Position numbers and translations under genes: made by a program. The notes beneath the pieces were generated by a model. The model had not been told where the DNA came from and did not search any database. It saw nothing but the letters and a program-made list of their open reading frames with translations. Below, in pieces: positions 8,331-38,239 of a DNA stretch of 64,000 nucleotides. The stretch spans positions 1 through 64,000 of the forward strand of contig PGYL01000004.1 of assembly GCA_002839645.1 (NCBI GenBank). Reading direction: 5' to 3'. The stretch is from Methanomicrobiales archaeon HGW-Methanomicrobiales-2 (GTDB lineage: Archaea > Halobacteriota > Methanomicrobia > Methanomicrobiales > Methanoculleaceae). Position 1 is the first letter of the stretch. Every line of letters starts with the position of its first letter.

Positions 8331-8517
8331 TACATATGCGATACGATGAGATATACACATCTGAAAAGCGTATATATTTTTCCATTCCTCTCGCCTGGAG
8401 CATTTCTCTCCAGTGTTCGTCGCCCCCCCACCGGTGAAATGATCAAGAATACACACTTCAATTTAGAAATAGACTAATAACTTGGCTTTTTTAAGCCCCA
8501 GCCGGGCTATACACAGA

Positions 8518-15292: not shown

Positions 15293-15402
15293 GTGAGACA
15301 CTTGTTCTTCTGAGATAAAAAGAGAATTGCTTATGGTGTTTGGAAAAAGAACGTCTCTCTAATTCCAGTTACCTCTTTGGGGCAATTAAACCGGGTGGGC
15401 CT

Positions 15403-18306
15403 ATGGGATATCGTTCAGGAGACATTGTAGCGTTGAGAAGCCGCCTTTGGCGGCTTGATTCGGTCGAAGGAGACATCCTCTGTGCAACGTGTATCGATAG
15501 CGAGTCCGCAGAGCGGCACCGTTTTTTTACACCGTTCGAGAGGATTGAAAAAGGGCAGATTCGTTCCCCGGACCCGGAGAGGATAGGGGATGTTGCGACT
15601 AACCGTATGCTGGTTCAGGCATTCCGATATTCCATGGTCCATGGGACTGCGCCGCTGATGAGCCTGCGGAAAAGTGCCGTCATCCCGACCGAGTACCAAC
15701 TGGCTCCCGTGATTATGGCCCTGAACCAGGGGGCACGGGTTCGGATGCTGATTGCTGATGATGTCGGGCTTGGTAAGACGATCGAGGCCGGGCTTATCGC
15801 TTCTGAATTGAAGTCCCGGAACCTGGCATCCCGGATCCTCATCATCTGCCCGCAGAACCTTCGAGGGCAGTGGAAGGATGCACTCCAGTATTTCTTCCAG
15901 ATTGATGCAAAGATCTTCTCCTCAGTGCATCTCCGTGGCCTTGAAAGAGGTATTCCACCAGGCGCAAATCCCTGGGCTTACTATCCGTGTATCATCACCT
16001 CCATCGATTACATCAAATCCGAGCGGATCCGCCCCTTTGCGATCAGCGCAGACTGGGACCTTGTGATCGTCGATGAGGCACATCTCGTTGCAAAACCCCA
16101 CCAGAGTGCCGAGAAGGAGAGCACTGGCATGCTCCGGCACACCCTGGCAAAGGAGATCGCGAAAAAGACAAAACATCTCCTGCTGCTCACCGCAACGCCC
16201 CATAACGGTTATACCGATACCTTCGCGAGCCTCCTTGTCATGCTCGACTGCGGGATTGTAACTGGCCCACTGCATGAGCCGGTGATCAACCGGGCTCTAG
16301 CGAAAGACCATGTCTGCCAGCGGCGGCGAAAAGATGTGGTTGACTGGTTCCGTTCCCACGCTGCTGAAGATAATCCGTTCCCTGACCGCGACCAGAAGGA
16401 AGTTGCCGTCGATCTGGCGTTCCCTGAGGAACACACGATCATAAACGAACTCAGTAACTACGGAACCGGTCTGCTCGATCTCGCAAGGCAGGATGACCGC
16501 ACCGAGGTCAGAATGATGGCCCGGTGGGTGGTGCTGCACCTCCACCGCCGGGGGCTCTCCTCCCCACGTGCGCTACAGATATCACTTGAAAACCGGCTCA
16601 AGCGGATCGAGGAGAAGATCCGGGAGAAGGACGATAGGCAGGATCAGGCTATCTCGGAGGGGCATGCGAAGGCAGTCGCCCTTGATGAAGAAGGGGACGG
16701 CGATCTCTCTGATGAGGAGGCGTCCGAGCGTGTCGACCAGGTGATCTACGGGAGCCTGACAGTACTGGAAGCGGAAGCGGAGCGTCTCCGGGACCTGATG
16801 AAGATGGCACGGGACGTGACCCCGGCAAAGGACAGCAAACTCCGAGAACTCACCCGGAGAAATGGCTACCTGGACCTGGCGATGCGAGGACAGTATGGCC
16901 CGCGTAAGGTCCTGATCTTCACCCGGTACAAGGATACGCTGGACTATCTCGTGGCGGAGATGCCGAAGCGGCTGAAGAGCATCAATCCTGCGCACGTGTT
17001 TGCCGTGTACGGCGACCTGAACGAGAAAAACCGGCACGAGGTGATGGATGCGTTCATCGAGGCGGAGTATGGGGTTCTGGTCGCGACCGACTGCATCAGC
17101 GAGGGGGTGAACCTCCAGCATATGGCAAATCAGGTCATCCACTACGAACTGCCATGGAACCCGAACCGGCTTGAACAGCGGAACGGCCGGCTGGACCGGT
17201 ACGGGCAGCCCGAGCGCGAGGTTCATATACGGACGCTTGTGATGCGGGATACGCTCGATGCAAAGATTCTCCGGGTGCTGTATGAGAAGGCCCAGCAGAT
17301 CCGGGAGGATTATGGGTTCTCTCCGCCGTTCTTCGGCGACGATGCAGACGTGATCTCCCTTATTGGGGAGATGGGGTTGGACGTCGACCTGCCGCCGGCG
17401 CAGCGGACGCTGTTTGATTCGTACCAGGATGGGCCCGGTTCGAGGCAGCTGGTCGATCCGTTTAGCGAGGAGACTATCGAGAAGATCAAGAGCGAGAGTT
17501 TCTACGGGCAGACCGGTGTCGATCTCGAGGATGTTCGGGCCCGGATGGCGCTCTCGGAGCAGGTTATCGGGACGGAGAAGGACTTCGAGCACTTCGTGAG
17601 ATACGGGCTTACCCGCTTCGGCTGCACGATCACGGAGAACTGTGACCGCAACCGGACGGTGCGGGTTCTGCTCTCCGATGCTCTGGTGGTCCCGGGCCTT
17701 CCTGAGGTGATCGAGAAGGCTACGTTTGAGAAGCGAATCGCCCTTCAGGAGATCGGTATCGAGCAACTGAATACGGGACATCCGGTGGTGCGCCGCCTGA
17801 TCGAGCTCGTCAAGCGCGATGTCTTCTCACCGGAGACGGAGATGTACGGCAGGGTCTGTGTGGTGGCGACCCCGGATGCGGCGCACGTGACGGCATTATA
17901 CCACTTCCTCGTGCGCTATAGCATCGGCGGGGCACCCCCCTCGCTGGTGGGGGAGATCGTGCCGGTAGCCTGCGATCTGGTCACGGGGTCTTTCCCGGGC
18001 GAGGAGGAGGCCACCGGTCTCGACCGTGTGGAGATGGTGCCGTTGCCCCCCGGGCGCGAGGCGAGTGTGAAGAAACACCTTGTCCGGGCGCTTGCCGAGG
18101 AGACGTGGTCCCTGGTCTTTACCGAGCGGATCGAGGCTCGGCGTCAGGAACTGGTGGCTGAACGGGAGGCATTGAGGCAGCAGCTCGCGGCGGTCTATCC
18201 CGATCCCGAGTGGCTTGGAGGTGCCGCCGAGGTCTCAGTTGCCTCCCACGATCTGATATCGCTGCGGTTGCTTGAGCCGGTGCCGGCGGCGGGGGTGCGG
18301 CGATGA
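15403..18306 (+). CDS. SNF2-family helicase, DISARM DrmD-like
   Basis: The 967-residue product is a superfamily 2 SNF2-type DNA translocase. It has motif I LIADDVGLGKTIEAGL (near residue 120), motif II DLVIVDEAHLV (near 222), motif III LLLTATPHNG, and the C-terminal lobe motifs LVATDCISEGVNLQ and RLEQRNGRLDRYGQ. The N terminus (GYRSGDIVALRSRLWRLDSV) is a small beta domain seen in the helicases of DISARM class 1 and related restriction systems. It overlaps the methylase gene by four bases (ATGA). A frame from TTG 15340 exists, but GGTGGGCC lies just before the ATG at 15403. Inferred role: ATP-driven partner of the methylase in recognising or processing foreign DNA. Confidence 0.8.
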   Translation: MGYRSGDIVALRSRLWRLDSVEGDILCATCIDSESAERHRFFTPFERIEKGQIRSPDPERIGDVATNRMLVQAFRYSMVHGTAPLMSLRKSAVIPTEYQLAPVIMALNQGARVRMLIADDVGLGKTIEAGLIASELKSRNLASRILIICPQNLRGQWKDALQYFFQIDAKIFSSVHLRGLERGIPPGANPWAYYPCIITSIDYIKSERIRPFAISADWDLVIVDEAHLVAKPHQSAEKESTGMLRHTLAKEIAKKTKHLLLLTATPHNGYTDTFASLLVMLDCGIVTGPLHEPVINRALAKDHVCQRRRKDVVDWFRSHAAEDNPFPDRDQKEVAVDLAFPEEHTIINELSNYGTGLLDLARQDDRTEVRMMARWVVLHLHRRGLSSPRALQISLENRLKRIEEKIREKDDRQDQAISEGHAKAVALDEEGDGDLSDEEASERVDQVIYGSLTVLEAEAERLRDLMKMARDVTPAKDSKLRELTRRNGYLDLAMRGQYGPRKVLIFTRYKDTLDYLVAEMPKRLKSINPAHVFAVYGDLNEKNRHEVMDAFIEAEYGVLVATDCISEGVNLQHMANQVIHYELPWNPNRLEQRNGRLDRYGQPEREVHIRTLVMRDTLDAKILRVLYEKAQQIREDYGFSPPFFGDDADVISLIGEMGLDVDLPPAQRTLFDSYQDGPGSRQLVDPFSEETIEKIKSESFYGQTGVDLEDVRARMALSEQVIGTEKDFEHFVRYGLTRFGCTITENCDRNRTVRVLLSDALVVPGLPEVIEKATFEKRIALQEIGIEQLNTGHPVVRRLIELVKRDVFSPETEMYGRVCVVATPDAAHVTALYHFLVRYSIGGAPPSLVGEIVPVACDLVTGSFPGEEEATGLDRVEMVPLPPGREASVKKHLVRALAEETWSLVFTERIEARRQELVAEREALRQQLAAVYPDPEWLGGAAEVSVASHDLISLRLLEPVPAAGVRR

Positions 18307-21300
18307 GAGGCAGAGAGCAGTCCTTTGTCCGCGTCTCGGGCGGGATCGTCACGGAGCATTTTGCTTCCCTGCTGCAGGACGAAAAGCACGGGTTTGAGTA
18401 TGCCCGGCCGATGACGTTCGTGCGGCCCTGGCGGGAGGAGGACCTTCCGCCACAGGATGAGGCGCAGTTCCTTGCGCAGGTCAGGGATGTATGGGAGCGG
18501 CTCCTTCGCCGGTTTGACGAGAAGTTCCGGGATATCTGGTCCGGAAAAATGAGCGCGGAGGAGGTCAGGCGCCTCTGGCAGCGGCCGGTGCTGGACGCGC
18601 TTGGGTTCGAGCCGACGTCCACGACGAAGCAGATTGTGATCAGTGATCGGCTGAAATACCGGTTCTCCCATCGGGGATGGTTTGCCCGCGAGGGTATTCT
18701 GAAACCGCCGGTGATCCATATCCTTCCGCCGGGGACGGACCCCGGTGCCCGCCCCTCCCGCGGGGAGCCTTCACCGCACGACGCCCTGCAGGACTGCCTG
18801 AACCGGCACGACGCGACCTGGGCTGTGCTGATGAACGAGACGGTGATCCGGATCCTGCGCGACTACCATCATACGACGGTCCCCGGATACATCGAGTTCG
18901 ACCTCGAAGGGATATTCCTGAACCGGAGCTTCACTGAGTTCCTTGCGCTCTACCGGTTCTGCCATGCAAGCCGGTTCGCCCGCGATCCTGCGACCGGCAA
19001 GGAGCCACTGGAGAATTATTATGAAGTTAGCCGGCAGGCGGGGGAGAAGGTCGGTGAGAGTCTCCGGGCGAATGTGGTCCGGGCGATCGAGGAGTTCGGG
19101 AACGGGTCCCTGGACGGGTCGCTGATCGAGCGGCTGCGGGGCGATGATGAGGCGTGCCGGGCGTACTACCAGGAGATCCTGACGGTGGTGTACCGGATCA
19201 TCTTCATGCTCTTTGCGGAGCAGCGGGGGATGCTTGGCGGCGGGGACCACGGGGACCTCTTCCTTGAGGAGTATTCGATCACATCGCTCAGGGAGCGGGT
19301 GGATGCGTTCGAGGGCCGGGATGACCGGAACACCGACCTCTGGGAAGGGCTCTCTGTGACGTTTAGGATGCTCGAAGAGGGGGTGCCCGAACTCGGGGTG
19401 AACGCGTTTGATGGGATGCTCTTTTCAAACGACGGGGTCCGGTTCCTGAAGGACACGAAGTGCCGGAACACTGCGCTGATGAACGCTATCCGGTCGCTGA
19501 CCTGGACGGTGCCGGAGACCGGAAGGGGGCAGAGAGGTCACGGGCGGCAGCGGATCAGTTACGCCGACCTTTCGGTCGAGGAGATCGGGGCGATCTACGA
19601 GAGCCTGCTCGATTACACGCCGCGGATCACCACGGGGTTTGAAGAGGTCGAAGGGCGGGAGTACCGGCCCGGCCAGTTCATGCTGGACCCCCGGGGATCG
19701 GAGCGGAAGACCACGGGGTCGTACTACACGAACCCGGACCTGATCGCGGAGCTGATCAAGAGCGCTCTTGACCCAGTGATGGCCAACCGGCTCTCCCGGG
19801 CAGGGCCGGACCCCGCAGCCCGGGAGAAGGCACTGCTCTCGATCCGGGTATGTGATCCGGCATGCGGGAGCGGGGCATTTTTGATCGCGGCGTCGAACCG
19901 GCTCGGCCGGGAACTGGCGAAGATCCGCACCGGGACGGAGCTGCCTTCGGCTCAGGAGGTGCAGGCAGCCCGGCGGGACGTGCTCTCCCACTGCATCTAC
20001 GGCGTGGACTTGAACCCGATGGCGGTGGAACTCGCGAGGGTCTCACTCTGGATCAACGCGCTGGTAGGCGATAAGCCGCTCTCCTTCCTTGACCACCATA
20101 TCAAGTGCGGGAACTCGCTCGTCGGGGCGACGCCGGAGTTGATCGCGGGAGGCATCCCGGACGAGGCCTACACACCGGTGGAGGGAGACTCAAAAGAGGT
20201 CGCGAACAGGATTAAAAAGGCAAACCGGGAGCAGCGGCAGACCCGGACGTTTGAGGAGTTCTCCGCCCGGTCGAGGGTGCTGGAGGCCTGTGCCGGACGG
20301 TTTGCGGCGCTCGCGGAGGCCTCTGAAGACGACCCCGACAGCGTCGAGGCGAAGAAGACCGAGTACAAGCGGCTCATCGCCTCGTCCGAGTATGCAAAGG
20401 AGCGCCTGGCCGCGGACTGCTGGTGCGCCGCGTTCTTCTGGCCGCTGGATGCGGAGTACGCGAGAACGGCCCCGACGACCGCGACGGCGCGGATGGTGCA
20501 GGCGAGCGGGGGAGGGATGCTCGTTGAGGATACGCTGGACGAGGTACGGCGTATTGCAAACGAGCACCGGTTCTTCCACTGGCACCTCGAGTTCCCGGAG
20601 GTCTTTGCGGACGGGGGGTTCGACTGCGTGCTCGGGAACCCACCGTGGGAAGTTATGAACCTCAATGAGAAGGAGTTCTTTGCATTCAGGGCACCGGCGA
20701 TCGCAGAGGCCCCGGGTGCAAAACGCAAAAGACTGATTGAAAACCTGAAAAAATCAGATCCTCCGCTCTATAATGAGTATATATCTGCCTTACGGGACGA
20801 GCAAAGGTCAACATTATTTATCCGAGGATCGGGACGCTTCCCGCTGACGGCGGTCGGGAAGACCAATACTTACAGTATTTTTTCCGAACTAGCCCGGAAG
20901 ATTATCTCATCGAGGGGCCGGGCGGGGATCATCGTGCCAACCGGGATCGCGACCGATGCAACGACGGCTCCGTTCTTCGGTGACATGGTGGAGTCAGGGT
21001 CGCTTGTGAGCCTCTATGACTTTGAGAACAAGGAAGTGATCTTCCCGATTCACCGCAGTTTCAAGTTCTGCCTCCTTACGATGGCTGGGAGCGAGGCGGC
21101 CACCGGGGCCTTCGACCTCGCCTTCTTCGTTCACCGGATCGGCGACCTTCACGACGATGACCGGCACTTCACCCTCACGCCGGAGGAGATCCTGCTCATC
21201 AACCCGAACACGAAGAACTGCCCGATCTTCCGGTCGAAGCGGGACGCCGAGATCACGAAGGCGGTCTACCGGCGGGTGCCGGTGCTCGTGAACGAGGGAA

Positions 21301-22844
21301 AAGGCGAGGCGGGGAACCCCTGGGGGGTCTCGTTTAAACAGGGATTGTTCAACATGACCAGTGATTCCCACCTCTTCCGCACGCGGGACGAGATGGAGGC
21401 GGCGGGGTTTTTGCTCGGTGGGAACCAGTTTGTGAAGGGGGAAGAGGTCTGGTTGCCGTTATATGAGGGTAGAATGATTAATCATTACGATCATAGAACT
21501 GCATCCGTTGGAGTGAATCCAGATAATCTATATCGCTCCGCAACAACAATTCAGACAAACGGCTCTGAACACGGCGATCCTACTTTTTGTGTACTGCCAA
21601 GATATTGGGTTAGCAAGAAAACATTTCAGGAGTCAGTGAGATCTCAGCATCCTAATTCGTATTTTATTGGATTTAAGGACGTTAGTAGCCCCACTAACGA
21701 AAGAACATTTATCAATGCTATCATTCCCTTTACCCCAGCGGGGAACAAAGTACCATTACTTCTAACAAATTGTGCCAAAGTGACCGCGATCCAGTTTAAT
21801 TCAAATCTTAGTTCACATATTTTTGATTTTACCGCTCGACAGAAAATGGGGGGAGTCTCATTGAATTTTTATATTGTTGAGCAACTCCCCGTCCTCCCCC
21901 CCTCCGCCTATACCCCCACCCTCACCAACTTCATCGCCCCCCGCGTCATTGAGCTCACCTACACCGCCTGGGACCTCGAAGCCTTCGCCCGCGACGTCCT
22001 CGCCGAGGTGGGCGTGACGCAGTGGAACGCCTGGTTCCCGCAGAACCCCGTAGGCGATGACGGCACGCCCCGGCCGTTCGCCTGGGACGAGGAGCGGCGG
22101 TTCGACCTCCGGTGCGATCTCGACGCCCTCTACTTCCACCTCTACGAGATCTCGCGGGACGACGTCGACTACATCATGGAGACCTTCCCCATCGTGAAGC
22201 GCAGGGACGAGGCGGCGTATGGGAGGTACCGCACGAAGGAGGTCATCCTCCGGAAGTACGACGACCTTGCCCGGGAGTTTGTGCGCGTGATGCGGGCCGA
22301 TCTTCCGGAGAAGGACGGGAAGCCTGACTGGACCGCGCTCATCGCCGGCGGCGAGAGCGAGCGGGTCGAGTTCAAGGAGTCGATGTCATGGGACCGGGGG
22401 CAAAAGCAGCGCAACAAAGCGCTCGAGCACACCATCGCGAGAACCCTTGCGTCCTTCATGAACACCCACGGCGGGGTGCTCTTCGTCGGTGTCGACGACG
22501 CCGGGACGATCGTCGGACTCGACGGCGACCTGAAACTCTCCCAGCGGAAGAACGAAGACGGCCTGCGGCTCCGGTTCGACGACCTGGTGAAGCAGTACCT
22601 CGGCAACCGGTTCCTCCCCGGGATCATGATCCACCCGCTCGAAGATGGCGGGAAGGCATTCTGGGCGGTTGAGGTCAGGGCTTCTAACGAGCCGGTGTTT
22701 GTGAAGAACAACGGCGACGACGAGTTCTGGATCAGGGGGACGTCGTCGTCGCGGAAGCTCTCGCTGAGCCAGGCCGTAGAATATATAAAGACTCACTTCG
22801 GTACCTCTTCTCAAGGAACGAATCCGGATTCCAAAGGATACTAA
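18303..22844 (+). CDS. Eco57I-type adenine-N6 DNA methylase with C-terminal AlbA_2 domain
   Basis: The 1513-residue product carries the adenine-N6 methyltransferase motifs VCDPACGSGAFLIAASNRLG (SAM binding, near residue 516) and CVLGNPPWEVMNL (catalytic NPPW, near 777). A long target-recognition region follows. The last 170 residues form an AlbA_2/Schlafen-type domain, beginning near GGESERVEFKESMSWD and including THGGVLFVGVDDAGTIVGLD. No PD-(D/E)XK nuclease motif is obvious. The size and pairing with a SNF2 helicase match DrmMI of DISARM class 1 and similar helicase-methylase systems. The stretch 21460-21870 is locally AT-rich, perhaps a swapped specificity segment. The start overlaps the helicase stop, and a ComF-like gene follows 12 bases on. 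Confidence 0.85.
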   Translation: MRGREQSFVRVSGGIVTEHFASLLQDEKHGFEYARPMTFVRPWREEDLPPQDEAQFLAQVRDVWERLLRRFDEKFRDIWSGKMSAEEVRRLWQRPVLDALGFEPTSTTKQIVISDRLKYRFSHRGWFAREGILKPPVIHILPPGTDPGARPSRGEPSPHDALQDCLNRHDATWAVLMNETVIRILRDYHHTTVPGYIEFDLEGIFLNRSFTEFLALYRFCHASRFARDPATGKEPLENYYEVSRQAGEKVGESLRANVVRAIEEFGNGSLDGSLIERLRGDDEACRAYYQEILTVVYRIIFMLFAEQRGMLGGGDHGDLFLEEYSITSLRERVDAFEGRDDRNTDLWEGLSVTFRMLEEGVPELGVNAFDGMLFSNDGVRFLKDTKCRNTALMNAIRSLTWTVPETGRGQRGHGRQRISYADLSVEEIGAIYESLLDYTPRITTGFEEVEGREYRPGQFMLDPRGSERKTTGSYYTNPDLIAELIKSALDPVMANRLSRAGPDPAAREKALLSIRVCDPACGSGAFLIAASNRLGRELAKIRTGTELPSAQEVQAARRDVLSHCIYGVDLNPMAVELARVSLWINALVGDKPLSFLDHHIKCGNSLVGATPELIAGGIPDEAYTPVEGDSKEVANRIKKANREQRQTRTFEEFSARSRVLEACAGRFAALAEASEDDPDSVEAKKTEYKRLIASSEYAKERLAADCWCAAFFWPLDAEYARTAPTTATARMVQASGGGMLVEDTLDEVRRIANEHRFFHWHLEFPEVFADGGFDCVLGNPPWEVMNLNEKEFFAFRAPAIAEAPGAKRKRLIENLKKSDPPLYNEYISALRDEQRSTLFIRGSGRFPLTAVGKTNTYSIFSELARKIISSRGRAGIIVPTGIATDATTAPFFGDMVESGSLVSLYDFENKEVIFPIHRSFKFCLLTMAGSEAATGAFDLAFFVHRIGDLHDDDRHFTLTPEEILLINPNTKNCPIFRSKRDAEITKAVYRRVPVLVNEGKGEAGNPWGVSFKQGLFNMTSDSHLFRTRDEMEAAGFLLGGNQFVKGEEVWLPLYEGRMINHYDHRTASVGVNPDNLYRSATTIQTNGSEHGDPTFCVLPRYWVSKKTFQESVRSQHPNSYFIGFKDVSSPTNERTFINAIIPFTPAGNKVPLLLTNCAKVTAIQFNSNLSSHIFDFTARQKMGGVSLNFYIVEQLPVLPPSAYTPTLTNFIAPRVIELTYTAWDLEAFARDVLAEVGVTQWNAWFPQNPVGDDGTPRPFAWDEERRFDLRCDLDALYFHLYEISRDDVDYIMETFPIVKRRDEAAYGRYRTKEVILRKYDDLAREFVRVMRADLPEKDGKPDWTALIAGGESERVEFKESMSWDRGQKQRNKALEHTIARTLASFMNTHGGVLFVGVDDAGTIVGLDGDLKLSQRKNEDGLRLRFDDLVKQYLGNRFLPGIMIHPLEDGGKAFWAVEVRASNEPVFVKNNGDDEFWIRGTSSSRKLSLSQAVEYIKTHFGTSSQGTNPDSKGY

Positions 22845-22856
22845 GGAGCGAAAAAT

Positions 22857-23549
22857 ATGGTGGAGGTTTTTGTAAGATCTGATGGGGTAAAACTTGAAAT
22901 TCTCTATCCGCCGTACTGTGTGGTGTGCGGCAATCCGATCCCGGACAGTTTTGCGAAGGCTCCTTACTGTGGAGTATGCAAAGATAGTCCGGAGAAGTAC
23001 GATCCGCCCTTCCGTGTCCGGGCATTCGGGAAGTATCTCTTTGAAGGCGAGTATCCTAATGACAGACTGAGTAAGGATATCCGCAGAATGAAGACAGATT
23101 CAACCATTATCCCGCTTCTTCAGGAGTGCTTGTATTACTCTATGGATCACCAGTATCCCGAACTGCGGGAGCTTGATGTCGTAGTCCCGGTAATGGGCGG
23201 GTCCAGTGGTAGAGGTTACAATCAGGCAGCACTCCTTGCCCAGGGTATTGCCTCCCGATATAATCTCCCGTGCAGGGATGTGATCTATACGAAGGCGCCT
23301 TATCGGCCAATGCACGAAATACATAACCTGGCAGAGAAAGAGAGAGAAATCGCGGGAAAAATTGGATGTAATTACCAATTTGAAGGTGAGTCCATCCTCC
23401 TCATCGACGATACATGCATTGATATGGTGACAAAACGTGAGTGTACTCAGGTGCTGCAAGCTCATGGAGCTGGGGATGTCTGGGCACTTGTTCTGGGGCG
23501 GATGGTTAACAGGAGACATTTGGGCTTCTTGAGGAGATACAATGGATAA
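22857..23549 (+). CDS. ComF-like zinc-ribbon phosphoribosyltransferase
   Basis: The 230-residue protein has a zinc ribbon (CVVCGNPIPD, then CGVCKD) followed by a type I phosphoribosyltransferase domain. It shows a VVVPVMGGSSGRGYNQAALL segment and a PRPP-loop-like strand ESILLIDDTCIDMVTKREC with two adjacent Asp residues. This is the ComF architecture. In bacteria ComF acts in DNA uptake; in archaeal defence islands such proteins are better viewed as nucleotide-binding or nucleotide-handling partners. AAGGAGCG precedes the ATG. It follows the methylase by 12 bases and overlaps the DprA-like gene by 8, so the four genes 15403-24495 form one operon. Confidence 0.75.
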   Translation: MVEVFVRSDGVKLEILYPPYCVVCGNPIPDSFAKAPYCGVCKDSPEKYDPPFRVRAFGKYLFEGEYPNDRLSKDIRRMKTDSTIIPLLQECLYYSMDHQYPELRELDVVVPVMGGSSGRGYNQAALLAQGIASRYNLPCRDVIYTKAPYRPMHEIHNLAEKEREIAGKIGCNYQFEGESILLIDDTCIDMVTKRECTQVLQAHGAGDVWALVLGRMVNRRHLGFLRRYNG

Positions 23550-24495
23550 TTTCTTCAGACAAGAGACCGCACTGCTCGCCTGCCTCAACGACAACCAATC
23601 CTTGAAAAAAAGGGAGAATATTGATTACTTCCGCGATCCGGCATCTATTCGCAACATATTCACCGATATCTTTGAAAATTACTCAAGCGCGCACAGAGAC
23701 TATCCGGAAGTAATCTTGCCCGTTATTGAAAAAGCTGAAGTTGCCCGGGAAAAGCAGCTCCTCGATCACTATATTGACGTCATCAAGCGATATCGACAGA
23801 AAAGCATCCATATTCTGCAAGTGACTGATAGGGATTACCCGCTGAAACTCGCGAGAATCCCTGATCCACCCTTTATGATCTATATAAAGGGCAGGATGGA
23901 AAGCCTTTCAAGACCTGCGGTTGCAATTGTCGGTACACGGGATATCAGTCCAGATGGTGCTGAGAAAGTCCAAGAGATTGTCGGATTCTTTGTACAACTC
24001 GGATATACAATTGTCAGTGGACTGGCGCTTGGAACGGACGCATGTGCTCATAAAGCCGCACTGGATCTTGGCGGTGAAACCATTGCGGTGCTTCCTGGAG
24101 ATATTGAAAACGTTGTTCCAAAAGAGAACCAGGAGCTCGCCGAGAGGATATCCAAATCAGGAGCGCTCATTAGCGAGATTACCCTTCTCACGAAAATGCA
24201 CAGAGGCCGATATATAGAGAGAAACCGTATCACGAGTGCCTTGTCCAAAGCCGTGATCGTGATCGAAACTGGAGAGTCCGGTGGCTCAATCCGGCAGGCT
24301 GAAACTGCTTTCAAGCAGGGGACGCCCGTATATGTGGTAAGGCCCGATAACACGAATGAAAGGGCAGTCGCCGGGTTTGATAAATTAGTCTCGGAAGGAG
24401 CAACTCCTATCAATAATCTGTATGACTTGTCCGCACACTTCGGAAAAGCGCAGAATACTACTTCACGAATGACAACACTCGCAGATTTTTCATAA
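23542..24495 (+). CDS. DprA/Smf-like Rossmann (SLOG) protein
   Basis: The 317-residue product has an N-terminal helical part (about 95 residues) and a DprA-type Rossmann domain. It contains DRDYPLKLARIPDPP, VAIVGTRDISPDG, IVSGLALGTDACAHKAAL, IAVLPGDIENVVPKENQELA and RNRITSALSKAVIVIE, all matching the DprA signature order. Bacterial DprA loads RecA on incoming single-stranded DNA. Related SLOG proteins in conflict systems bind nucleotides or cyclic nucleotides. No C-terminal winged helix is seen. GAGGAG precedes the ATG, and the gene overlaps the ComF-like gene. A DprA-ComF pair inside a helicase-methylase operon of a methanogen is unusual. Confidence 0.85.
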   Translation: MDNFFRQETALLACLNDNQSLKKRENIDYFRDPASIRNIFTDIFENYSSAHRDYPEVILPVIEKAEVAREKQLLDHYIDVIKRYRQKSIHILQVTDRDYPLKLARIPDPPFMIYIKGRMESLSRPAVAIVGTRDISPDGAEKVQEIVGFFVQLGYTIVSGLALGTDACAHKAALDLGGETIAVLPGDIENVVPKENQELAERISKSGALISEITLLTKMHRGRYIERNRITSALSKAVIVIETGESGGSIRQAETAFKQGTPVYVVRPDNTNERAVAGFDKLVSEGATPINNLYDLSAHFGKAQNTTSRMTTLADFS

Positions 24496-24635
24496 TTTAG
24501 CCCACACCTCCTATTTCAGAGTCCTTTTCTCTCGAAACCCCCCTCACTCACCATATTCCAAAAATCCCTATCCTAATTGGAGTATTTGCGGGTAAAACTG
24601 ATGAGTGGGGAATCAGGTGGTGCTGGATTTGGATA

Positions 24636-26381
24636 TTAAGGCTTTTCATGCATTATCTTCTGCAGCATCTGATTTACTTCCTGTATCGGGATTAACCCTT
24701 TCGAGGTGATATCAAAGGTCAGGAACCCGACCGGAACAATCTGCTGATCGCGGAATGCTTCCTCAAGCCAGAGCAGATCGCTCATATGTCTAATTGCGGC
24801 GACATTATCGATGACAATGTAAACTCTTGCAGAATCGCGATTAGATCTGTACTTCGCTATAGTCTCCGACAAATGGGCGATGAGCTCTCTCCCATTTCTA
24901 TCTCCAGCAAACAGCGTCTCTATCTCGTAATACCCATTGCCTTTCTTATCAAAAACGTCTGGAATGAAGTGTTCGGCACTGAAACTCGAATCTTGGGGTT
25001 TTTCAGTAAATATGGCTTCCTCTATCTCCGTAATATTCTTCAACTGATATTTTTCAGAGAGGTATCGGACAACATAGCACTTCATCCGATAGTGTTCATC
25101 GGACTCTTTGGATCTCTTTTTTGTTACTATCTGGTATAGCCTATTTTCTGCTTTGGTGAATGAGGAGAATTCTTTCTCATATTCCCCTCTACATATTTTG
25201 TTGAAGACTGCGTCTAAGTCATGTGAGGAGATATTCGTCTCTCTTCTTCCCTTATTTCGATTATACTGAATGACTACTCGAGGTTCTTCCTGACCTTGCC
25301 TACAATTTCCCCAGAAAACTGATGAAATCCATCTCTTTTCATCTATTGAATGGGAATTGGGCTTAACAACAAGAATGTCCAGGGGATGGCCGTTCTCGTG
25401 CGCGAGTTGCTCTTGAATCACTCGCCGGTAAGCCTCAAAATGATCCTCTCTCCGGGACTTGAAAATAATGAACCCATAATCTGCAGCAATTGCTCTCCCT
25501 ATGAAGTCACGCAGGTTTTTGGGTTTCAACCAATTCTCTACATCCGCCTGATTAAAGTAATCAAAATCCAGCGTGATAAGGTGACGGCCTGGATCTGCCC
25601 ACTTGTCTAAATAGATCACAATGGTTTCGTCCAGCCTGCTGACAGGCTGTAATCTCGGATCACCGCCTACCTGTTCCCGGTAGATACGTAGACAGCAGGT
25701 CTCAAAACTGGCCAGGGTATTATCCTCAGGTCGCTCTTTGTAGAGAATGATCTTTGGCCGCCGGGTCGATAGATCGTCGTTTTTGATCCCAAACAGGTAC
25801 TGCATGACCTCTGGAGGCTCCTCAGGTATGCCGGTGCCCCCTCCGGGGGGTGAATCTGGCAGGGTTGTTTCCGGGGTTTCCTCTATGTCTTCTCGATTAA
25901 CTGAAGTCTGCTCACGGAGTGTTGCGTATGTAGTGACCCAGCGCTCCTGAACATCGCTAACACATTCAGTCCAGGTACTATGGAGAACTGGAGCTGACTG
26001 TTGAAGACTCACCACAGGGACGTAAAAGCGGACATCTTCTTTTGGTATTGAGGGAATGTGATCGTCCAGCACAACTCTGTTCATGGTGATACTCCCCGGC
26101 CGTAAGCGGAGTATCGGCACGCTCAGGTCCAGACTGCTATGCCGGTGGATTTCAGAAATGGTGCAGTCAAATTCAATCTTGGAGAAGTATTCTTTTGCTT
26201 GTCCCGGTAACTTGACAATTGGGACGCTAACCGCAATATGTTCGCCTTCAAAATTAGAGAAATCTAATTCCAGCCCGTCATTCCTACCAGATTCTGGTTC
26301 CCGCCCGATATCTGCACTTATGCCCGGGGGGTGTCCATCGGGCATCTGCCCGCTGTTCTCTTTATTCACTTCCATGGACAT
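24636..26381 (-). CDS. Unknown 581-residue protein with PD-(D/E)XK-like C terminus
   Basis: I do not recognise this family. The first 40 residues are polar. Three short related segments follow: IAVSVPIVKLPG, LDLSVPILRLRPG and VRFYVPVVSLQQ. A Pro/Gly-rich linker (PPGGGTGIPEEPPE) joins to a 360-residue alpha/beta part. Near the end, SDEHYRMKCYVVRYLSEKY is followed after a loop by HFIPDVFDKKGNGYYEIETL. That is the helix-strand-strand order of PD-(D/E)XK nucleases, with PD and E-I-E but Thr where Lys is usual. Activity is therefore uncertain. GGGTGG lies before the ATG. It is last in the leftward run behind viperin, 36 bases after the previous gene. The 140 bases between it and the DprA-like gene show no gene. 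Confidence 0.6.
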   Translation of the reverse strand: MSMEVNKENSGQMPDGHPPGISADIGREPESGRNDGLELDFSNFEGEHIAVSVPIVKLPGQAKEYFSKIEFDCTISEIHRHSSLDLSVPILRLRPGSITMNRVVLDDHIPSIPKEDVRFYVPVVSLQQSAPVLHSTWTECVSDVQERWVTTYATLREQTSVNREDIEETPETTLPDSPPGGGTGIPEEPPEVMQYLFGIKNDDLSTRRPKIILYKERPEDNTLASFETCCLRIYREQVGGDPRLQPVSRLDETIVIYLDKWADPGRHLITLDFDYFNQADVENWLKPKNLRDFIGRAIAADYGFIIFKSRREDHFEAYRRVIQEQLAHENGHPLDILVVKPNSHSIDEKRWISSVFWGNCRQGQEEPRVVIQYNRNKGRRETNISSHDLDAVFNKICRGEYEKEFSSFTKAENRLYQIVTKKRSKESDEHYRMKCYVVRYLSEKYQLKNITEIEEAIFTEKPQDSSFSAEHFIPDVFDKKGNGYYEIETLFAGDRNGRELIAHLSETIAKYRSNRDSARVYIVIDNVAAIRHMSDLLWLEEAFRDQQIVPVGFLTFDITSKGLIPIQEVNQMLQKIMHEKP

Positions 26382-30755: not shown

Positions 30756-30873
30756 TGCAATCCCCTCAGTGTTTTTGACGGGCCGGGAACCACCTCAGTC
30801 CTCGATCGCGATTGAAAATGGGGGTACGGGAGATATAAACCCCTACATTCGTGTTCCAGTAAAAGAACCCCCA

Positions 30874-31707: not shown

Positions 31708-31743
31708 GTATTACGACTCTAAAAGGAAAAACTATCACCCTTC

Positions 31744-31762
31744 TTTGAAATTGTTTTTCAAA
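31744..31762. promoter_or_regulatory. Inverted repeat between viperin and CARF regulator genes
   Basis: TTTGAAA (31744-31750) and TTTCAAA (31756-31762) form a perfect 7-bp dyad with a 5-base spacer. It is in the 94-base region between the two divergent start codons. It overlaps or flanks the expected basal promoter of viperin and lies 10 bases before the TATA box of the CARF gene, so it is a candidate operator for the CARF-wHTH protein. Confidence 0.45.
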
Positions 31763-31771
31763 TAGGAAACA

Positions 31772-31780
31772 AAATATACA
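31772..31780 (+). promoter_or_regulatory. TATA box of the CARF regulator
   Basis: AAATATACA is centred about 26 bases before the ATG at 31802, the distance expected for a leaderless archaeal transcript. No ribosome binding site precedes that ATG, which agrees. Confidence 0.5.
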
Positions 31781-31801
31781 ACTCCGATACATCTTCTCCG
31801 T

Positions 31802-32878: not shown

Positions 32879-35800
32879 ATGACAAATACCAGTTTTGACC
32901 CGGTAACGGCCCTCGATACAGTTGCCGGCGCATATCGAACCTTCGTCAGTTCTTTCCAGAAATTCAAGAACCCTGTCATCAAAGAATGGATCGACAGAAA
33001 GATTGAGGAAGGAACGCTCCTCTACAAAGGCCCGTACATCGAGCTTGCCCGCCGGTACGCCGATGGAGACTCCTTTGACAACCTCATTGGAGCGGGTATC
33101 CTCCATCCAGAAACCTCGCAGTACTTCACCAGGGACCCGGAAGACCGGTCATCCTCTCCGGTCCGCCTCTACCAGCACCAGAGCGATGCAATACGATCGA
33201 TAGTATCGGGAAAAAACACTGTCGTCACATCAGGAACCGGCTCCGGGAAATCCTTCTGCTTTGCAATACCCGTCGTCTCCACATGTCTTGAGATGCAGGA
33301 CCGGGGCCTCCGGGGCATCAAGGCAATCCTCGTCTACCCGATGAATGCGCTCGCAAACTCCCAGTATGACGACCTCTCGGCCCGCCTGGACGGCTCGGGT
33401 TTGAAGATCGCCATCTACACCGGCGATACTCCGCACACCTACAACGAAGCGCTCATCACATACCGGGCGCGGACCGCGCGAGATGCTCCCTATGATAGCG
33501 AGCTCATCTCACGGGAAGAAATCCAGCGAACTCCTCCGGACATCCTGATCACCAACTATGTAATGCTCGAGTACATCCTCACCCGATTTGAGGACAAGAT
33601 CCTCTTCCCGCCGGAGAACCTCGGCATTCTCAAATACCTCGTCCTCGACGAGATCCACACCTACACCGGGAAGAAGGGGGCCGACACTGCGTACCTCATC
33701 CGGAGGCTGAAACAGCACACTGGAACCACCGGGGCGCTCCGGTGCATCGGGACCAGTGCGACCGTGAGAGAGGGAGAGGGTGAGGAGGCAGGAGAGGCCA
33801 TCGCAAGGTTCGCCGCAAAACTCTTTGGTGAACCCTTTGACAGTACATCGGTCATCGGAGAGACATTCCTCCTCCCGCCCCGCGGCACGGAGAGCAAGCT
33901 TCCCAACAGGGTTCTCGTCGGCGACGACCTGCTCAAAGTAAGGGATCCCGGCAGGGAGTACCTGAAGGAACTCACCGAACAACTCATCGGCGAGCCGCTT
34001 GGGATCCAGGATCCCTCTGCTGCCTACCTCGGGGAAACCCTCGGGTCGCAGAAGACCGTCCAGTTCATCGAGGACCAGCTTGCTGATGAACCAAAGAGCA
34101 TTCCCGACCTGATCCGCATATATCGCGCGACCGTCAGGCAAGATGCCACGTATGAAGAGGCAGCCCGGGAGATCGAGGCTGCATTCATTGCAGGCATGCT
34201 CAGCGAGGTGCCTGTTGGGGATACCCTCCAGAAACGGTTCATCCCCAAGATGCACATGTACTTCTCGCAAGGGAGGGAGATCAAGTGTTGCCTCTCTCAC
34301 GACGGCCCTCACCTTCACGATGCCGGCGAAGTCACCTGCCCCGTCTGCGCAGAGAGAGGACGAACACGGATCACCTTCCCCATGGTCTTTTGCCGGGCAT
34401 GTGGTCAGGAATATTACAGCATCGAGCTCCTGGCCGATGGGACAGTCAGGCCACGTGATCTGGATGCTCCCGCGCAAGAGGGCGAGGCCCTGTACCTCTA
34501 CCTGGGGGAGTTTCGTGAGGGAAGGGCATCCCCGCCGGAGTGGTGGTGTACCGATTCCGGAGCAGTCAAAGAGAAGTATCGCACCATAGTCACTCCGCGG
34601 ACTGGCACTTACTGCCCGGACTGCAACAGGTTGCTTGTTGACGGAGAAGAGGGAGAGATATGCCTGTGCCCGGAGAAGATCCGTGTCACCCTCATCGAAA
34701 TGCCGTTCCGGTTCTGCCCAAGTGAAGGCTGCGGCGTATCCTATGACCTGAGAACGCGGAGGGAGTTCAACAAACTATTCTCCTTTGGCACCGTGGGGAG
34801 ATCTACCGCTACCGATATTTTGGTCTCGAATATGCTCACCACCCTCCCTGAAAACGAGCAGAAAGTCATCGCATTCTCTGACAACCGGCAGGATACAGCC
34901 CTACAAGCAGCCCACATGAACAACATTCAGAAGCGGATCCACTTCAGGCGGGGCCTGTATCATGCCTTGGCTCAGGCAGAGGGCTCTCTCCCCCTCACCG
35001 ACGTAGGGGACGCCATCTTTGACACTTTTATAGAATGTCGTGCAGACGGCGCTCTCCCTCAATACGAGAAAGATCCCGGTCGGGGCAGAATGCGGAGGGG
35101 CTCACAGGCCGAACCAGTGTATAGGAAATACCTCCTGATGAATGCCATCCTCGAGATGGGCTCAACACGTCAGAAGAACCAGCCGAACCTTGAGGATGTT
35201 GGCCTGTTGAAGGTCACCTATATTGGGCTTGCAAATCTCGCTGAGGATAATAATCTCTGGGAGGGCATCCCCAATCTCTCACTGGCAGGTCCCCGCAGGC
35301 GGGAGGATTACCTGAAGGGGTTCCTGGACATTATGCGCCATAATCTTGCTATCTCCTCTGACTTCTTCATGCATCCCTTTGAGTTTGCCGAAAAGATTGA
35401 GCGGTTCCTGAACCCCGATATCATATTCCACAACGAACTGCTCTCCACGCGGCCAACCGGGTACAGCGACAACGCGCGGAGAGAAACCTATCGGGCTACG
35501 GTCTACCGTCTCACTCACCCGAACGGATCGCTGGTTCGCTGGACAAAGAAGTCCCTGGGGACAGAGACTGCTGAAGAAGCGCAACAGATCGTCGAACATG
35601 TAGAAGCAGTGCTTGCCGCTGAAGGTGGGCTGAAGCAGGAGCGTATCGACCGGGTTGGAACCCTCTCCATGATCAACCCCGATATCATCGAACTCTCGCT
35701 CGCTCCTCCCGGAGAGGTGCAGGTCTGCAGGAAATGTGGGCAGGTGACCCACTTCCATGAACTCAATCTCTGCATCAACCCGAACTGCACCGACCTTATC

Positions 35801-38239
35801 ACGCTCGACCTCTCCAACAACTACTTCCGGCAGGAGTATACAAGGTCGTTCCGGGAAGCGGTCCAGCTCCATGCGGAGGAGCACAGCGGACAGATCGACG
35901 GGGAGACCCGGAAACTGCTTGAAACCCGGTTCAGGGATTCGCAGGATAACCTGAACGTAATCGTATGTACCCCTACGATGGAGCTGGGTATCGATATCGG
36001 AACCCTTTCGGCTGTCTATTTGAGGAATGTCCCTCCATCGCCCTCCAACTATGCTCAACGTGCTGGACGAGCAGGACGAAAGTCGCAGGCCTCGATGATC
36101 CTCACATTCTGTGGTGTCGGCTCACGCCGCGGTCCCCATGACCAGTACTTCTACCGGTATCCGGCAAAGATGATCTCCGGAAAGATCGCCTCCCCCCGGT
36201 TCCTGATGGATAATCGGATGCTTATCCGTGCGCATATCCATTCCCTCATTCTTGAGATCATCACTCTTAAAATCCCGCAGAAGATCGATGGCATACTCGA
36301 CTTCGAGAAGGAAAACCTCCCGATGTTCACGGAGAACATCCCGGGTGTGGAGGAAGGCCTCAGCAGAACCCGCCTTAGTGAGATGATCGGGGAGCACCGG
36401 GTGCAGATCCTGAATGCAATCAACGAGGTGCTTGCGGAAGAGAAGCAGTCCCTCGGCTGGCTTGACGACACCTTCATCGTACAGACTGTCGGTTCGTTTG
36501 TCACCTCGTTTGATGGCGCGTTCAACCTCTTCAGGGGTGAATTTTCAGCCCTCCTCAAAGAACTGGACGAGATTAACATCTTCCTGCAGAGGGGCCGGAT
36601 CTCTGAGCGACAGAGGGGCGCCTACAAGCGAAGGCGGGACTCGATCGAAAAGAAACTGAACGATATGCGGAACGGCGGCGGGGACTTTACGACCTATCGG
36701 TATCTTGGCTCACAGGGGTTCCTCCCCAACTATGGCTTCCCCACACAGGTTACATCTCTTGCAATCAACTACAAGGGGGTCTTTGGGTCAGAAGAAGCAG
36801 AGCTGAAGCGGGATCGCAACATCGCGCTGGTAGAGTACGCCCCCGGCAACAGTGTGTACTTCAGCGGGAATCGGTACTCGGTCAGGACTCCCCGGCTCAG
36901 GACCGAGAACAACCAGCCTGCAATGAGCACTGTTCTTACTTGCCCGTACTGTGAGGCGGTCTATCTGGATGAGAAGGAGATCTCAATGACCGGTGGTGCC
37001 TGCAGGAGTTGTGGCGCATCCTTGGAGAGTGCAGTAGTGATTCACCACTCAATTGAGATGCCCGACCAGCTGGCGGAGTCTAGATCGACGATCACGAGTG
37101 ATGAGGAGGAACGGCAACGTCTCGGCTATGAGGTCACCCGCCACTATACCCCCTCAGGCACACGGCAATTTTACGTGGTGGGAGACCCCGGCGAACCGCT
37201 GCTCACCATCTCCTACGACCATTCGGGAAAGATCGTCAGCATCAATCACGGCCCAATACCGTCTGATAAAGATGAACCACAGTCGGGTTTCACGCTCTGC
37301 ACGGCATGTAACCGCTGGATTTTCGGGAAGGATGGAGTGAAAGACCATCTGGACCCAAAAAACGAGATGAAACGGTGCTGGAGGAATGGGACAGAGGAGA
37401 ATATTATCAGGAATATTGTCCTCTACACTAACACCCGACATGATGTTGTCAAGATTGATGTGCCCACTCTGCTTGATAGTGAGGGAAATCCGCTAGATGA
37501 AGAGTTGTATCGATCGTTCTTTACAACACTTGCTCAGGCGATCATCGAGGGTGTACAGATCAGCATGAATGTCGGTGTAGATGAGATCCGATACTTCCTG
37601 ATGCCGGATCCCCAGAATAGGAAGAAGTCAAGCATCATCCTCTACGAGACTTCAGAAGGGGGTGCTGGAATACTGGAGTCGATTGCTGATCATTCCACGT
37701 TCCACGAGGTTATCAGACAGGCGCTGACTATCCTTCACGAATACGATGAGAAAAAGTGTGACCGGGCGTGCTACGAATGCCTATGTAACTACTACAACCA
37801 GTTCGACCATGATCTCCTCGACCGGAAACTTGCACTCCCTCTCCTCCGGGATCTCCTCACACCAGGGATTCAGACAGTCCCTGATTCCTCTCCTTCAGCT
37901 AAGAAAATGCTTGAGGATCTACTAAAAACGTGTGAATCATCGTTAGAACAAACAGTTCTTGAGAGCATTTACTTAGCGGGTCTGCCTCTCCCGGACAGCG
38001 GGCAGAAGGTCATTACAGAGGGAGGGGAGTTGATTGCCCGCCCTGATTTTGCCTACCAGGAGAATGGACACTCAATTGTGATATTTGTTGATGGTCCTGA
38101 CCATGATAACGAATCACAGAAGAGAGATGATGAGATGAAGAGAGACAGACTCGATTTAATGGGGTATACTGTATTCACAATACACTACCGGGATGACCTT
38201 CAGGTAAAGATAAATGATCTAGCAGAACTATTGCTATAA
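32879..38239 (+). CDS. DUF1998 superfamily 2 helicase with C-terminal nuclease-like domain
   Basis: The 1786-residue product has a DEAD/DEAH helicase core split over a long insertion. Motif I is VVTSGTGSGKSFCFAI (near residue 118), the DEIH box is YLVLDEIHTYTG (near 257), and motif VI is YAQRAGRAGRKSQA (near 1058). Zinc-binding Cys pairs appear in the insertion and near 1354 (CPYCEAVY, CRSCGAS). A DUF1998 domain follows (CDRACYECLCNYYNQF near 1625). The last 95 residues (ARPDFAYQENGHSIVIFVDG, then PDHD and MGYTVFTIHY) look like a Vsr/DUF559-type endonuclease fold. Size and DUF1998 resemble DruE of Druantia and relatives of MrfA/DrmB, but no Druantia partner is present. A TATA-like TAATACTTATT lies about 35 bases before the ATG. 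Confidence 0.8.
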   Translation: MTNTSFDPVTALDTVAGAYRTFVSSFQKFKNPVIKEWIDRKIEEGTLLYKGPYIELARRYADGDSFDNLIGAGILHPETSQYFTRDPEDRSSSPVRLYQHQSDAIRSIVSGKNTVVTSGTGSGKSFCFAIPVVSTCLEMQDRGLRGIKAILVYPMNALANSQYDDLSARLDGSGLKIAIYTGDTPHTYNEALITYRARTARDAPYDSELISREEIQRTPPDILITNYVMLEYILTRFEDKILFPPENLGILKYLVLDEIHTYTGKKGADTAYLIRRLKQHTGTTGALRCIGTSATVREGEGEEAGEAIARFAAKLFGEPFDSTSVIGETFLLPPRGTESKLPNRVLVGDDLLKVRDPGREYLKELTEQLIGEPLGIQDPSAAYLGETLGSQKTVQFIEDQLADEPKSIPDLIRIYRATVRQDATYEEAAREIEAAFIAGMLSEVPVGDTLQKRFIPKMHMYFSQGREIKCCLSHDGPHLHDAGEVTCPVCAERGRTRITFPMVFCRACGQEYYSIELLADGTVRPRDLDAPAQEGEALYLYLGEFREGRASPPEWWCTDSGAVKEKYRTIVTPRTGTYCPDCNRLLVDGEEGEICLCPEKIRVTLIEMPFRFCPSEGCGVSYDLRTRREFNKLFSFGTVGRSTATDILVSNMLTTLPENEQKVIAFSDNRQDTALQAAHMNNIQKRIHFRRGLYHALAQAEGSLPLTDVGDAIFDTFIECRADGALPQYEKDPGRGRMRRGSQAEPVYRKYLLMNAILEMGSTRQKNQPNLEDVGLLKVTYIGLANLAEDNNLWEGIPNLSLAGPRRREDYLKGFLDIMRHNLAISSDFFMHPFEFAEKIERFLNPDIIFHNELLSTRPTGYSDNARRETYRATVYRLTHPNGSLVRWTKKSLGTETAEEAQQIVEHVEAVLAAEGGLKQERIDRVGTLSMINPDIIELSLAPPGEVQVCRKCGQVTHFHELNLCINPNCTDLITLDLSNNYFRQEYTRSFREAVQLHAEEHSGQIDGETRKLLETRFRDSQDNLNVIVCTPTMELGIDIGTLSAVYLRNVPPSPSNYAQRAGRAGRKSQASMILTFCGVGSRRGPHDQYFYRYPAKMISGKIASPRFLMDNRMLIRAHIHSLILEIITLKIPQKIDGILDFEKENLPMFTENIPGVEEGLSRTRLSEMIGEHRVQILNAINEVLAEEKQSLGWLDDTFIVQTVGSFVTSFDGAFNLFRGEFSALLKELDEINIFLQRGRISERQRGAYKRRRDSIEKKLNDMRNGGGDFTTYRYLGSQGFLPNYGFPTQVTSLAINYKGVFGSEEAELKRDRNIALVEYAPGNSVYFSGNRYSVRTPRLRTENNQPAMSTVLTCPYCEAVYLDEKEISMTGGACRSCGASLESAVVIHHSIEMPDQLAESRSTITSDEEERQRLGYEVTRHYTPSGTRQFYVVGDPGEPLLTISYDHSGKIVSINHGPIPSDKDEPQSGFTLCTACNRWIFGKDGVKDHLDPKNEMKRCWRNGTEENIIRNIVLYTNTRHDVVKIDVPTLLDSEGNPLDEELYRSFFTTLAQAIIEGVQISMNVGVDEIRYFLMPDPQNRKKSSIILYETSEGGAGILESIADHSTFHEVIRQALTILHEYDEKKCDRACYECLCNYYNQFDHDLLDRKLALPLLRDLLTPGIQTVPDSSPSAKKMLEDLLKTCESSLEQTVLESIYLAGLPLPDSGQKVITEGGELIARPDFAYQENGHSIVIFVDGPDHDNESQKRDDEMKRDRLDLMGYTVFTIHYRDDLQVKINDLAELLL

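What the first reader, a model, noticed from the sequence alone, without database searches (positions are those of the whole stretch)
22857..24495. ComF-DprA pair embedded in a helicase-methylase operon of a methanogen
A ComF-like phosphoribosyltransferase and a DprA-like SLOG protein overlap by 8 bases and follow an adenine methylase by 12. Bacterial homologues serve natural transformation, but this archaeal context points to defence: handling of incoming single-stranded DNA or nucleotide signalling.
Basis: partly seen in the sequence, partly recalled or inferred. Interest (0 to 1): 0.65.

Follow-up and report, generated by a model that had tools for sequence, protein, structure and literature searches.

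The report
Archaeal PRTase–DprA toxin–antitoxin-like defence pair
Two overlapping genes in a methane-producing archaeon look like an anti-virus "poison and antidote" pair of a kind known from bacteria (ShosTA/PsyrTA), carried as swappable cargo behind a helicase–methylase defence system, with an antidote whose tail resembles a docking peptide for the DNA-replication clamp.

Summary
In detail: a ComF-like phosphoribosyltransferase (PRTase, 22857-23549) and a DprA-like protein (23542-24495) overlap by 8 bp and start 12 bp after an adenine methylase. They are best read as an archaeal relative of the DprA-PRTase defence/toxin-antitoxin modules ShosTA and PsyrTA (RqlHI), not as competence genes. 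The DprA matches the PADLOC ShosA model (234 bits). The PRTase matches the PRTase end of PsyrT but not the ShosT model, so this is a divergent variant. In its class 14 of 232 genomes carry the PRTase, always with the DprA; all 19 strong DprA loci there sit beside a PRTase, as do 29 of 32 assessable loci across the phylum; 0 of 6 ordinary bacterial DprA do. The helicase-methylase link is rare (2 of 14 pairs, 2 of 10 methylases). Sister genomes show that the pair is a ~1.85-kb cassette swapped into a variable slot at the methylase 3' end, in a defence island. New lead: the DprA ends in a conserved TTLADF tail resembling the C-terminal PCNA-binding peptides of PolB and PolD in the same genome, suggesting clamp-tethered sensing of replication. 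Toxicity and clamp binding are untested.

The parts
22857..23549 (+). comF-like gene: PRTase with N-terminal C4 zinc-ribbon-like region; putative toxin/effector
22917..22979 (+). four invariant cysteines C21, C24, C38, C41 (zinc ribbon, as in H. pylori ComFC)
   Evidence: invariant in 8 of 8 rows; DZR_2 below cut-off; HpComFC Zn finger
23403..23441 (+). PRPP loop, residues 183-195 IDDTCIDMVTKRE; D184, D185 and T192 invariant, canonical TG replaced by DM
   Evidence: T192 lines up with HpComFC T165
23542..24495 (+). dprA-like gene (ShosA-like), putative antitoxin/sensor; overlaps comF by 8 bp
23932..23940 (+). G131-T132-R133, aligned with G-S-R115 of S. pneumoniae DprA (ssDNA site)
   Evidence: G131 and R133 invariant in 8 of 8; that R115 binds ssDNA is recalled
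24463..24492 (+). C-terminal tail SRMTTLADFS, PIP-box-like
22792..24637 (+). exchangeable cassette (47.6% G+C) in the place of other cargo present in sister genomes
   Evidence: DNA identity to G046/G050 stops at 22791; identity to G046 resumes at 24638; G+C
18303..22844 (+). DrmMI-like adenine methylase with C-terminal AlbA_2 domain; its last ~18 codons change with the cassette
15340..18306 (+). DrmD-like SNF2 helicase, overlaps the methylase by 4 bp
32879..38239 (+). DruE-like DEAD/MZB helicase, present beside DrmD/DrmMI in related loci

Best explanation
A chromosomal DprA-PRTase defence module of the toxin-antitoxin kind. The PRTase is the toxin/effector and probably acts on purine nucleotides or PRPP (inferred from ShosT). 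The translationally coupled DprA is the antitoxin and sensor: it binds DNA through its Rossmann core, keeps the PRTase in check, and releases it when virus replication disturbs its DNA or clamp association, so the infected cell stops growing (inferred). The conserved PIP-box-like tail probably tethers the DprA to PCNA (inferred, the least certain step). The pair moves as a cassette; here it occupies a variable slot behind a DrmD-DrmMI-DruE-like defence core and need not work with that core. Shown here: gene coupling, family assignment, swap of the slot, conservation of active-site residues and tail. Inferred: toxicity, neutralisation, trigger and clamp binding.
For: DprA matches ShosA PDLC03961 at 7e-70 (234 bits) and PsyrA at 4e-35; PRTase matches the PsyrT PRTase domain at 2.4e-10; the PRTase model matches H. 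pylori ComF (Z 9.5) and ShosT (Z 7.6) in the PDB; solved ShosA is among the DprA matches. Pairing: 14 of 14 PRTase loci in 232 class genomes have the DprA; 19 of 19 class DprA loci over 60 bits are beside a PRTase; 29 of 32 assessable phylum DprA loci; 0 of 6 ordinary bacterial DprA. Six of those class loci are other DprA-PRTase types: two PRTase-DprA pairs and four PsyrTA-type loci; the G158 pair scanned has PsyrT 948 bits and PsyrA 414 bits. Both damaged loci have a broken PRTase and an intact DprA (G093 frameshift/deletion; G120 insertion with a TnpB-like ORF), as expected if the PRTase is the harmful half. Published relatives protect against T7 and lambda, and RqlH toxicity maps to its PRTase domain and is curbed by the DprA-like RqlI.
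Against: No experiment. The PRTase does not reach the ShosT model (12.5 bits, E 0.025) and lacks a HAD domain. Its PRPP loop has lost the TG pair, which could mean loss of PRPP binding, although archaeal PsyrT loops also lack it. Two damaged loci out of 14 are too few to prove which half is toxic (both hits in the PRTase would happen by chance about 1 time in 4). Three archaeal DprA loci have no clear PRTase. No plasmid or viral relative of the pair was found. The PIP-like tail lacks the leading Q, and the relaxed motif was chosen after seeing the tails.
Confidence: 0.72

Rival explanations
1. The pair serves natural transformation or DNA uptake, as ComF and DprA do in bacteria.
For: The families are those of competence; HpComFC has the same zinc-finger plus PRT architecture; Methanoculleus thermophilus is naturally transformable.
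Against: Patchy (14 of 232 genomes); no ComEC in the host genome while it is found in 10 of 14 control genomes, though ComEC homologues are also unknown in competent archaea, so that absence is weak evidence; the transposon screen paper for archaeal transformation genes mentions neither DprA nor ComF (term counts and passages only); DprA-PRTase coupling is absent from 6 of 6 ordinary bacterial DprA.
Confidence: 0.08
2. The pair is a functional subunit of the DrmD-DrmMI system, e.g. an effector or signalling arm that needs the methylase.
For: Co-directional, 12 bp after the methylase here and 5 bp in Methanofollis G095, whose methylase is 74% identical.
Against: 12 of 14 pairs are elsewhere or, in contigs too short to tell, not seen beside it; 8 of 10 methylase genomes do not have the pair behind the methylase (two of those ten matches are on contigs that end at or near the gene: G076, G138); the same slot holds unrelated cargo in G046 (3 genes), G050 (2 genes, opposite strand) and G105 (1 gene), and nothing in G209.
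Confidence: 0.1
3. A decayed or repurposed module: the PRTase with loop DMVT has lost catalysis and the pair is now only a DNA-binding regulator or a relic.
For: TGAT in Methanoculleus-type rows versus DMVT/NMVT in the window, G095 and G158; regulators such as PurR and PyrR are PRTases (named).
Against: ORFs intact and 65-67% identical across families in the DMVT type; D184, D185, T192 and the cysteines invariant in 8 of 8; archaeal PsyrT loops also lack TG (DDMVDSRWT), and mutation of the predicted PRPP pocket of RqlH abolishes toxicity.
Confidence: 0.1

Closest known systems
ShosTA (DprA-PRTase defence/toxin-antitoxin system)
   Same: DprA-like protein matching the ShosA model (234 bits); adjacent PRTase; PRTase model resembles ShosT structures 8zvd/8zvc.
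   Different: PRTase is ComF-type with a zinc ribbon, no HAD domain, does not match the ShosT models; DprA clade separate from phage ShosA rows; archaeal.
PsyrTA / RqlHI
   Same: PRTase best PADLOC match is the PsyrT PRTase domain; PRPP loop equally long and without TG.
   Different: No RecQ helicase fused to the PRTase; DprA scores far better with ShosA than PsyrA.
ComFC and DprA of natural transformation
   Same: Folds: H. pylori ComF (Z 9.5) and S. pneumoniae DprA; zinc-finger cysteines.
   Different: Genetically coupled, patchy, in defence surroundings; DprA is shorter (317 vs 362-404 aa in six bacterial DprA).
DISARM class 1
   Same: Upstream helicase and methylase match DrmD and DrmMI models.
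   Different: DrmD below the NCBIfam cut-off; no DrmA, DrmB or DrmC recognised as best match in the island genes scanned; a DruE-like helicase instead.

Membership tests
ShosTA | DprA-like ShosA component | tested here: met
   PDLC03961 233.7 bits, E 6.9e-70
ShosTA | ShosT component recognised by its model | tested here: not met
   PDLC03962 12.5 bits, E 0.025, while phage Mana PRTase scores 141 and P24C9 ShosT 180
ShosTA | PRTase and DprA genes adjacent and coupled | tested here: met
   8-bp overlap in 12 of 12 undamaged pairs
ShosTA | N-terminal HAD domain of the toxin | tested here: not met
   No HAD match; the feature may not be universal, as the Mana PRTase (225 aa) is too short for it yet matches ShosT
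ShosTA | toxin alone harms, antitoxin rescues, phage protection | not testable with these tools
   needs expression tests
PsyrTA/RqlHI | RecQ-like helicase fused to the PRTase | tested here: not met
   PRTase is 230 aa; an archaeal PsyrT is 699 aa
PsyrTA/RqlHI | PRTase domain related to PsyrT | tested here: met
   PDLC03928 positions 564-684, E 2.4e-10
Natural-transformation ComF/DprA | ComEC DNA channel in the same genome | tested here: not met
   PF03772: 0 matches in a 99.5% complete genome; 10 of 14 controls ring. ComEC homologues are unknown in competent archaea in any case
Natural-transformation ComF/DprA | canonical PRPP loop DDxxTTGTT | tested here: not met
   window DDTCIDMVT versus HpComFC DDIITTGTT
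DISARM class 1 (for the neighbouring helicase-methylase) | DrmD over curated cut-off | tested here: not met
   NF038317 420.7 bits, cut-off 610
DISARM class 1 (for the neighbouring helicase-methylase) | DrmA, DrmB, DrmC present | tested here: inconclusive
   none recognised as best match in the genes scanned; whole genome not searched for them; the 1786-aa helicase matches DruE (442 bits) over DrmA (62 bits)

The most novel reading that the evidence does not exclude
Archaeal DprA-family proteins of this phylum are antitoxin-sensors of PRTase toxins that ride on the replication clamp: a C-terminal PIP-box-like tail ties the DprA to PCNA, so a virus that hijacks, replaces or overloads the clamp removes the antitoxin from its post and releases the PRTase. 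E. coli phage ShosA (P24C9) may do the same with a beta-clamp-like QQLSLL tail.
Probability: 0.33. Interest if true: 0.78.

Novelty: new variant of a known kind. Interest (0 to 1): 0.58.

Why it matters
It turns an odd 'competence gene' annotation in methanogens into a testable defence module, and suggests that most DprA homologues of the archaeal phylum sampled belong to PRTase-linked modules, not transformation. The slot behind the methylase gives a natural series (pair, other cargo, nothing) in near-identical surroundings. If the clamp-docking tail is real, it would supply a missing link for ShosTA/PsyrTA-like systems: how the DprA half senses viral replication.

Tried and rejected
Competence role: rejected as main reading; the transposon screen paper was seen in passages only. 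Membership in ShosTA proper or PsyrTA: a defining feature not met in each. Functional unity with the helicase-methylase: rejected by distribution and by the slot comparison. Direct repeats at the cassette ends: only a 6-bp match of the kind chance gives. Relatives on plasmids (none) and in viral contigs (none of 14 and none of 68 pattern stretches confirmed). Strict PIP box (Q..h..a): only 2 of 45 archaeal DprA rows, so the claim rests on a relaxed core; 23 of 45 rows have it against 47 of 370 other ORFs of the same loci, but with one member per 50%-identity cluster (11 clusters) shuffled tails reach the observed count in 3.9% of draws (1.1% with one fixed set of representatives), and the core was defined after seeing the tails. 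One row (L162, a second copy of L116) was dropped before these counts. Several DprA clusters have no such tail. P24C9 ShosA ends QQLSLLGDE, phages Mana and PfAC02a do not, so the bacterial parallel is one instance; four IMG/VR relatives were 91-100% identical and add nothing. AlphaFold models rest on 8-row alignments (pLDDT 71 and 80). In the tree five near-duplicate rows were left out beforehand. ShosTA's own mechanism paper (Pu et al. 2025) did not appear in the listings; its content is taken from a review passage. No paper on archaeal DprA-PRTase pairs, or on DprA with PCNA or a clamp tail, was seen in the listings; listings only, so this is weak evidence.

Full report
Observation. The two ORFs, their 8-bp overlap and the 12-bp gap to the methylase are as described. 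The first is a ComF-type phosphoribosyltransferase (TIGR00201, 43 bits, under its cut-off), the second a DprA (PF02481 203 bits, TIGR00732 over its cut-off). An 8-row alignment of the PRTase keeps four cysteines, the acidic pair D184-D185 and T192 in every row; T192 lines up with T165 of H. pylori ComFC, whose mutation abolishes nucleotide binding (passages). The canonical TG of the PRPP loop is replaced by DM in the window and in the G158 row, and by NM in Methanofollis G095, while five other rows keep TG or SG. In the DprA, G131 and R133, which align with the GSR motif of S. pneumoniae DprA (R115), are invariant in 8 of 8; K194, aligned with K175 of that protein, is not conserved (that R115 and K175 bind ssDNA is recalled).

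Distribution. Of 232 class genomes 14 encode the PRTase. All 14 are followed by the DprA, two of them truncated by contig ends. The 8-bp overlap is exact in 12 of 12 undamaged pairs. In the two remaining loci the PRTase gene is broken and the DprA intact: G093 by a frameshift/deletion, G120 by a 1.57-kb insertion carrying a TnpB-like ORF with hairpin ends. The genome collection gave 19 loci, close relatives only in records named Methanoculleus, Methanofollis, Methanoregula, Methanomicrobiales or Euryarchaeota; plasmids and viral contigs gave none.

A DprA-PRTase rule in these archaea. All 19 DprA matches over 60 bits in the class lie beside a PRTase: 13 of the window type, two with another PRTase (G184, G186) and four PsyrTA-type loci (G128, G158, G185, G186); the G158 locus scanned gave PsyrT 948 bits and PsyrA 414 bits. 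Many class genomes also have weak partial matches (under 33 bits), which I did not count or examine. Across the phylum 34 of 392 genomes have a DprA at E 1e-20 or better. Two loci (G346, G339) are cut off on the side where the PRTase lies in their sisters; of the other 32, 29 have an adjacent PRTase (some truncated, at a contig end or interrupted, as G464, G302 and G120) and three (G282, G307, G315) have none or only a remnant. Some are PRTase-DprA-HAD gene trios, or DprA beside a HAD-PRTase fusion, recalling ShosT. Six ordinary bacterial DprA have no PRTase within 1.5 kb. In a 50-row tree the window clade stands apart (7 rows 99/95; 9 rows with G258 100/95), separate from the P24C9 and PfAC02a ShosA and from the PsyrA group (several long branches).

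Known relatives. PADLOC names the DprA ShosA (234 bits) and puts the PRTase nearest to the PRTase part of PsyrT (E 2.4e-10), with ShosT only at 0.025. Rousset et al. 2022 (PMC9122126) report that DprA plus PRTase protects E. coli against T7 and lambda (passage). Russell and Mulvey 2015 (PMC4670107) show that RqlH toxicity needs its PRTase domain and is curbed by the DprA-like RqlI, which binds it (passages). A 2025 review (PMC12593503) says ShosT disturbs purine metabolism and ShosA binds DNA (passage, citing Pu et al. 2025). ShosT and ShosA structures are in the PDB. ShosTA is reported as more frequent in Asgard archaea than in other prokaryotes (PMC11291487, passage), so DprA-PRTase defence in archaea is not new as such.

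The slot. The methylase is found in 10 of 232 class genomes; the pair follows it in the window and in Methanofollis G095 only (in G076 and G138 the contig or match ends too early to tell). DNA similarity to sister genomes G046 and G050 (87-94% identity in the long pieces) ends at 22791, 53 bp before the methylase stop, and identity to G046 resumes at 24638, at the stop of the next gene. The same place holds three genes in G046, two in G050 on the opposite strand, one in G105 and none in G209, where the DruE-like helicase follows directly. The cassette has 47.6% G+C against 60.5% in the methylase, though the genes behind it are also low, 46.1%. So the pair is cargo at a variable slot, not part of the core. 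Nearby are a viperin, a TPR protein, a Csa3-like CARF protein, a TIR-STAND protein, an integrase and the DruE-like helicase. Ten neighbour proteins from six other pair loci were scanned; four of the six loci have a neighbour with a PADLOC match (HerA, PbeA-like, SngC/BrxH-like, PDC-M11A), though helicase matches are unspecific.

The tail. In the seven closest DprA rows T-L-A-D-F is fixed (mean pairwise identity 0.83 for residues 310-316 against 0.41 for 291-309) in a tail of very low model confidence. In the same genome PolB ends SRTTLFDFGL, the PolD large subunit RQLGLADFM and FEN1 TQKTLDAWF, which look like archaeal PCNA-binding peptides by position and pattern: Qxxhxxaa, and in the archaeal proteins compared always at the very C-terminus (PMC4858679, PMC6881253, passages). 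Other archaeal DprA rows end in, for example, QKTLDRWI, KTTFADFL, VTLDYFA, VSLDTWIEN. The relaxed core is in 23 of 45 archaeal DprA rows against 47 of 370 other ORFs of the same loci, but rows are related and the core was chosen afterwards; on 11 broad clusters the excess is modest. Against: no leading Q in the window type, strict matches only 2 of 45, and EndoQ of Methanomicrobiales is reported to lack a PIP box.

Mechanism. Most likely the DprA holds the PRTase inactive and ties it to DNA, perhaps to the clamp; interference with host replication or with the DprA frees the PRTase, which drains or alters purine nucleotides and stops the cell. Only gene structure, families, slot exchange and residue conservation are shown here; the rest is inferred from bacterial relatives.

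Verdict. A real, conserved module; a new archaeal variant of a known kind, misread in its link to the helicase-methylase operon. The clamp tail is the part that could make it more than that.

Noticed in passing
window 15340-22844 and 32879-38239; L101-L106: A recurring core of DrmD-like helicase, DrmMI-like methylase with AlbA_2 tail and a DruE-like DEAD/MZB helicase (in G133 and G152 in the order DruE-like, DrmD, methylase) looks like a composite of DISARM and Druantia parts; it may be a system of its own.
   Followed up: partly
window 21470-21880: About 400 bp inside the methylase lose DNA similarity to otherwise 87-94% identical sister genes, as expected of an exchanged target-recognition domain.
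   Followed up: no
L104:6360-7388 and L101:6241-7179: Other cargo in the same slot also carries strict PIP-like motifs near the C-terminus (QKNLFDF at the very end in G105; QRSLSSF about 20 residues from the end in G050).
   Followed up: partly
window 27798-32584: Prokaryotic viperin beside a TPR protein (1048 bits to a PADLOC TPR model) and a Csa3-like CARF protein; the trio is also present in Methanofollis G095 (L018).
   Followed up: partly
window 4521-7139 and 8482-9786: TIR-STAND protein (ThsB-like TIR domain) and a phage-type integrase in the left part of the window, in DNA of 34-51% G+C.
   Followed up: no
L027:2-775: In G158 the pair lies in the same 20-kb region as an ORF ending QQQLGLADFM, like the end of the host's PolD large subunit.
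   Followed up: no
L083:6676-10100, L085, L086, L084: PsyrTA-type loci (RecQ-PRTase plus DprA) occur in Methanomicrobiales; in G128 the PRTase appears separate from the RecQ-like part.
   Followed up: partly
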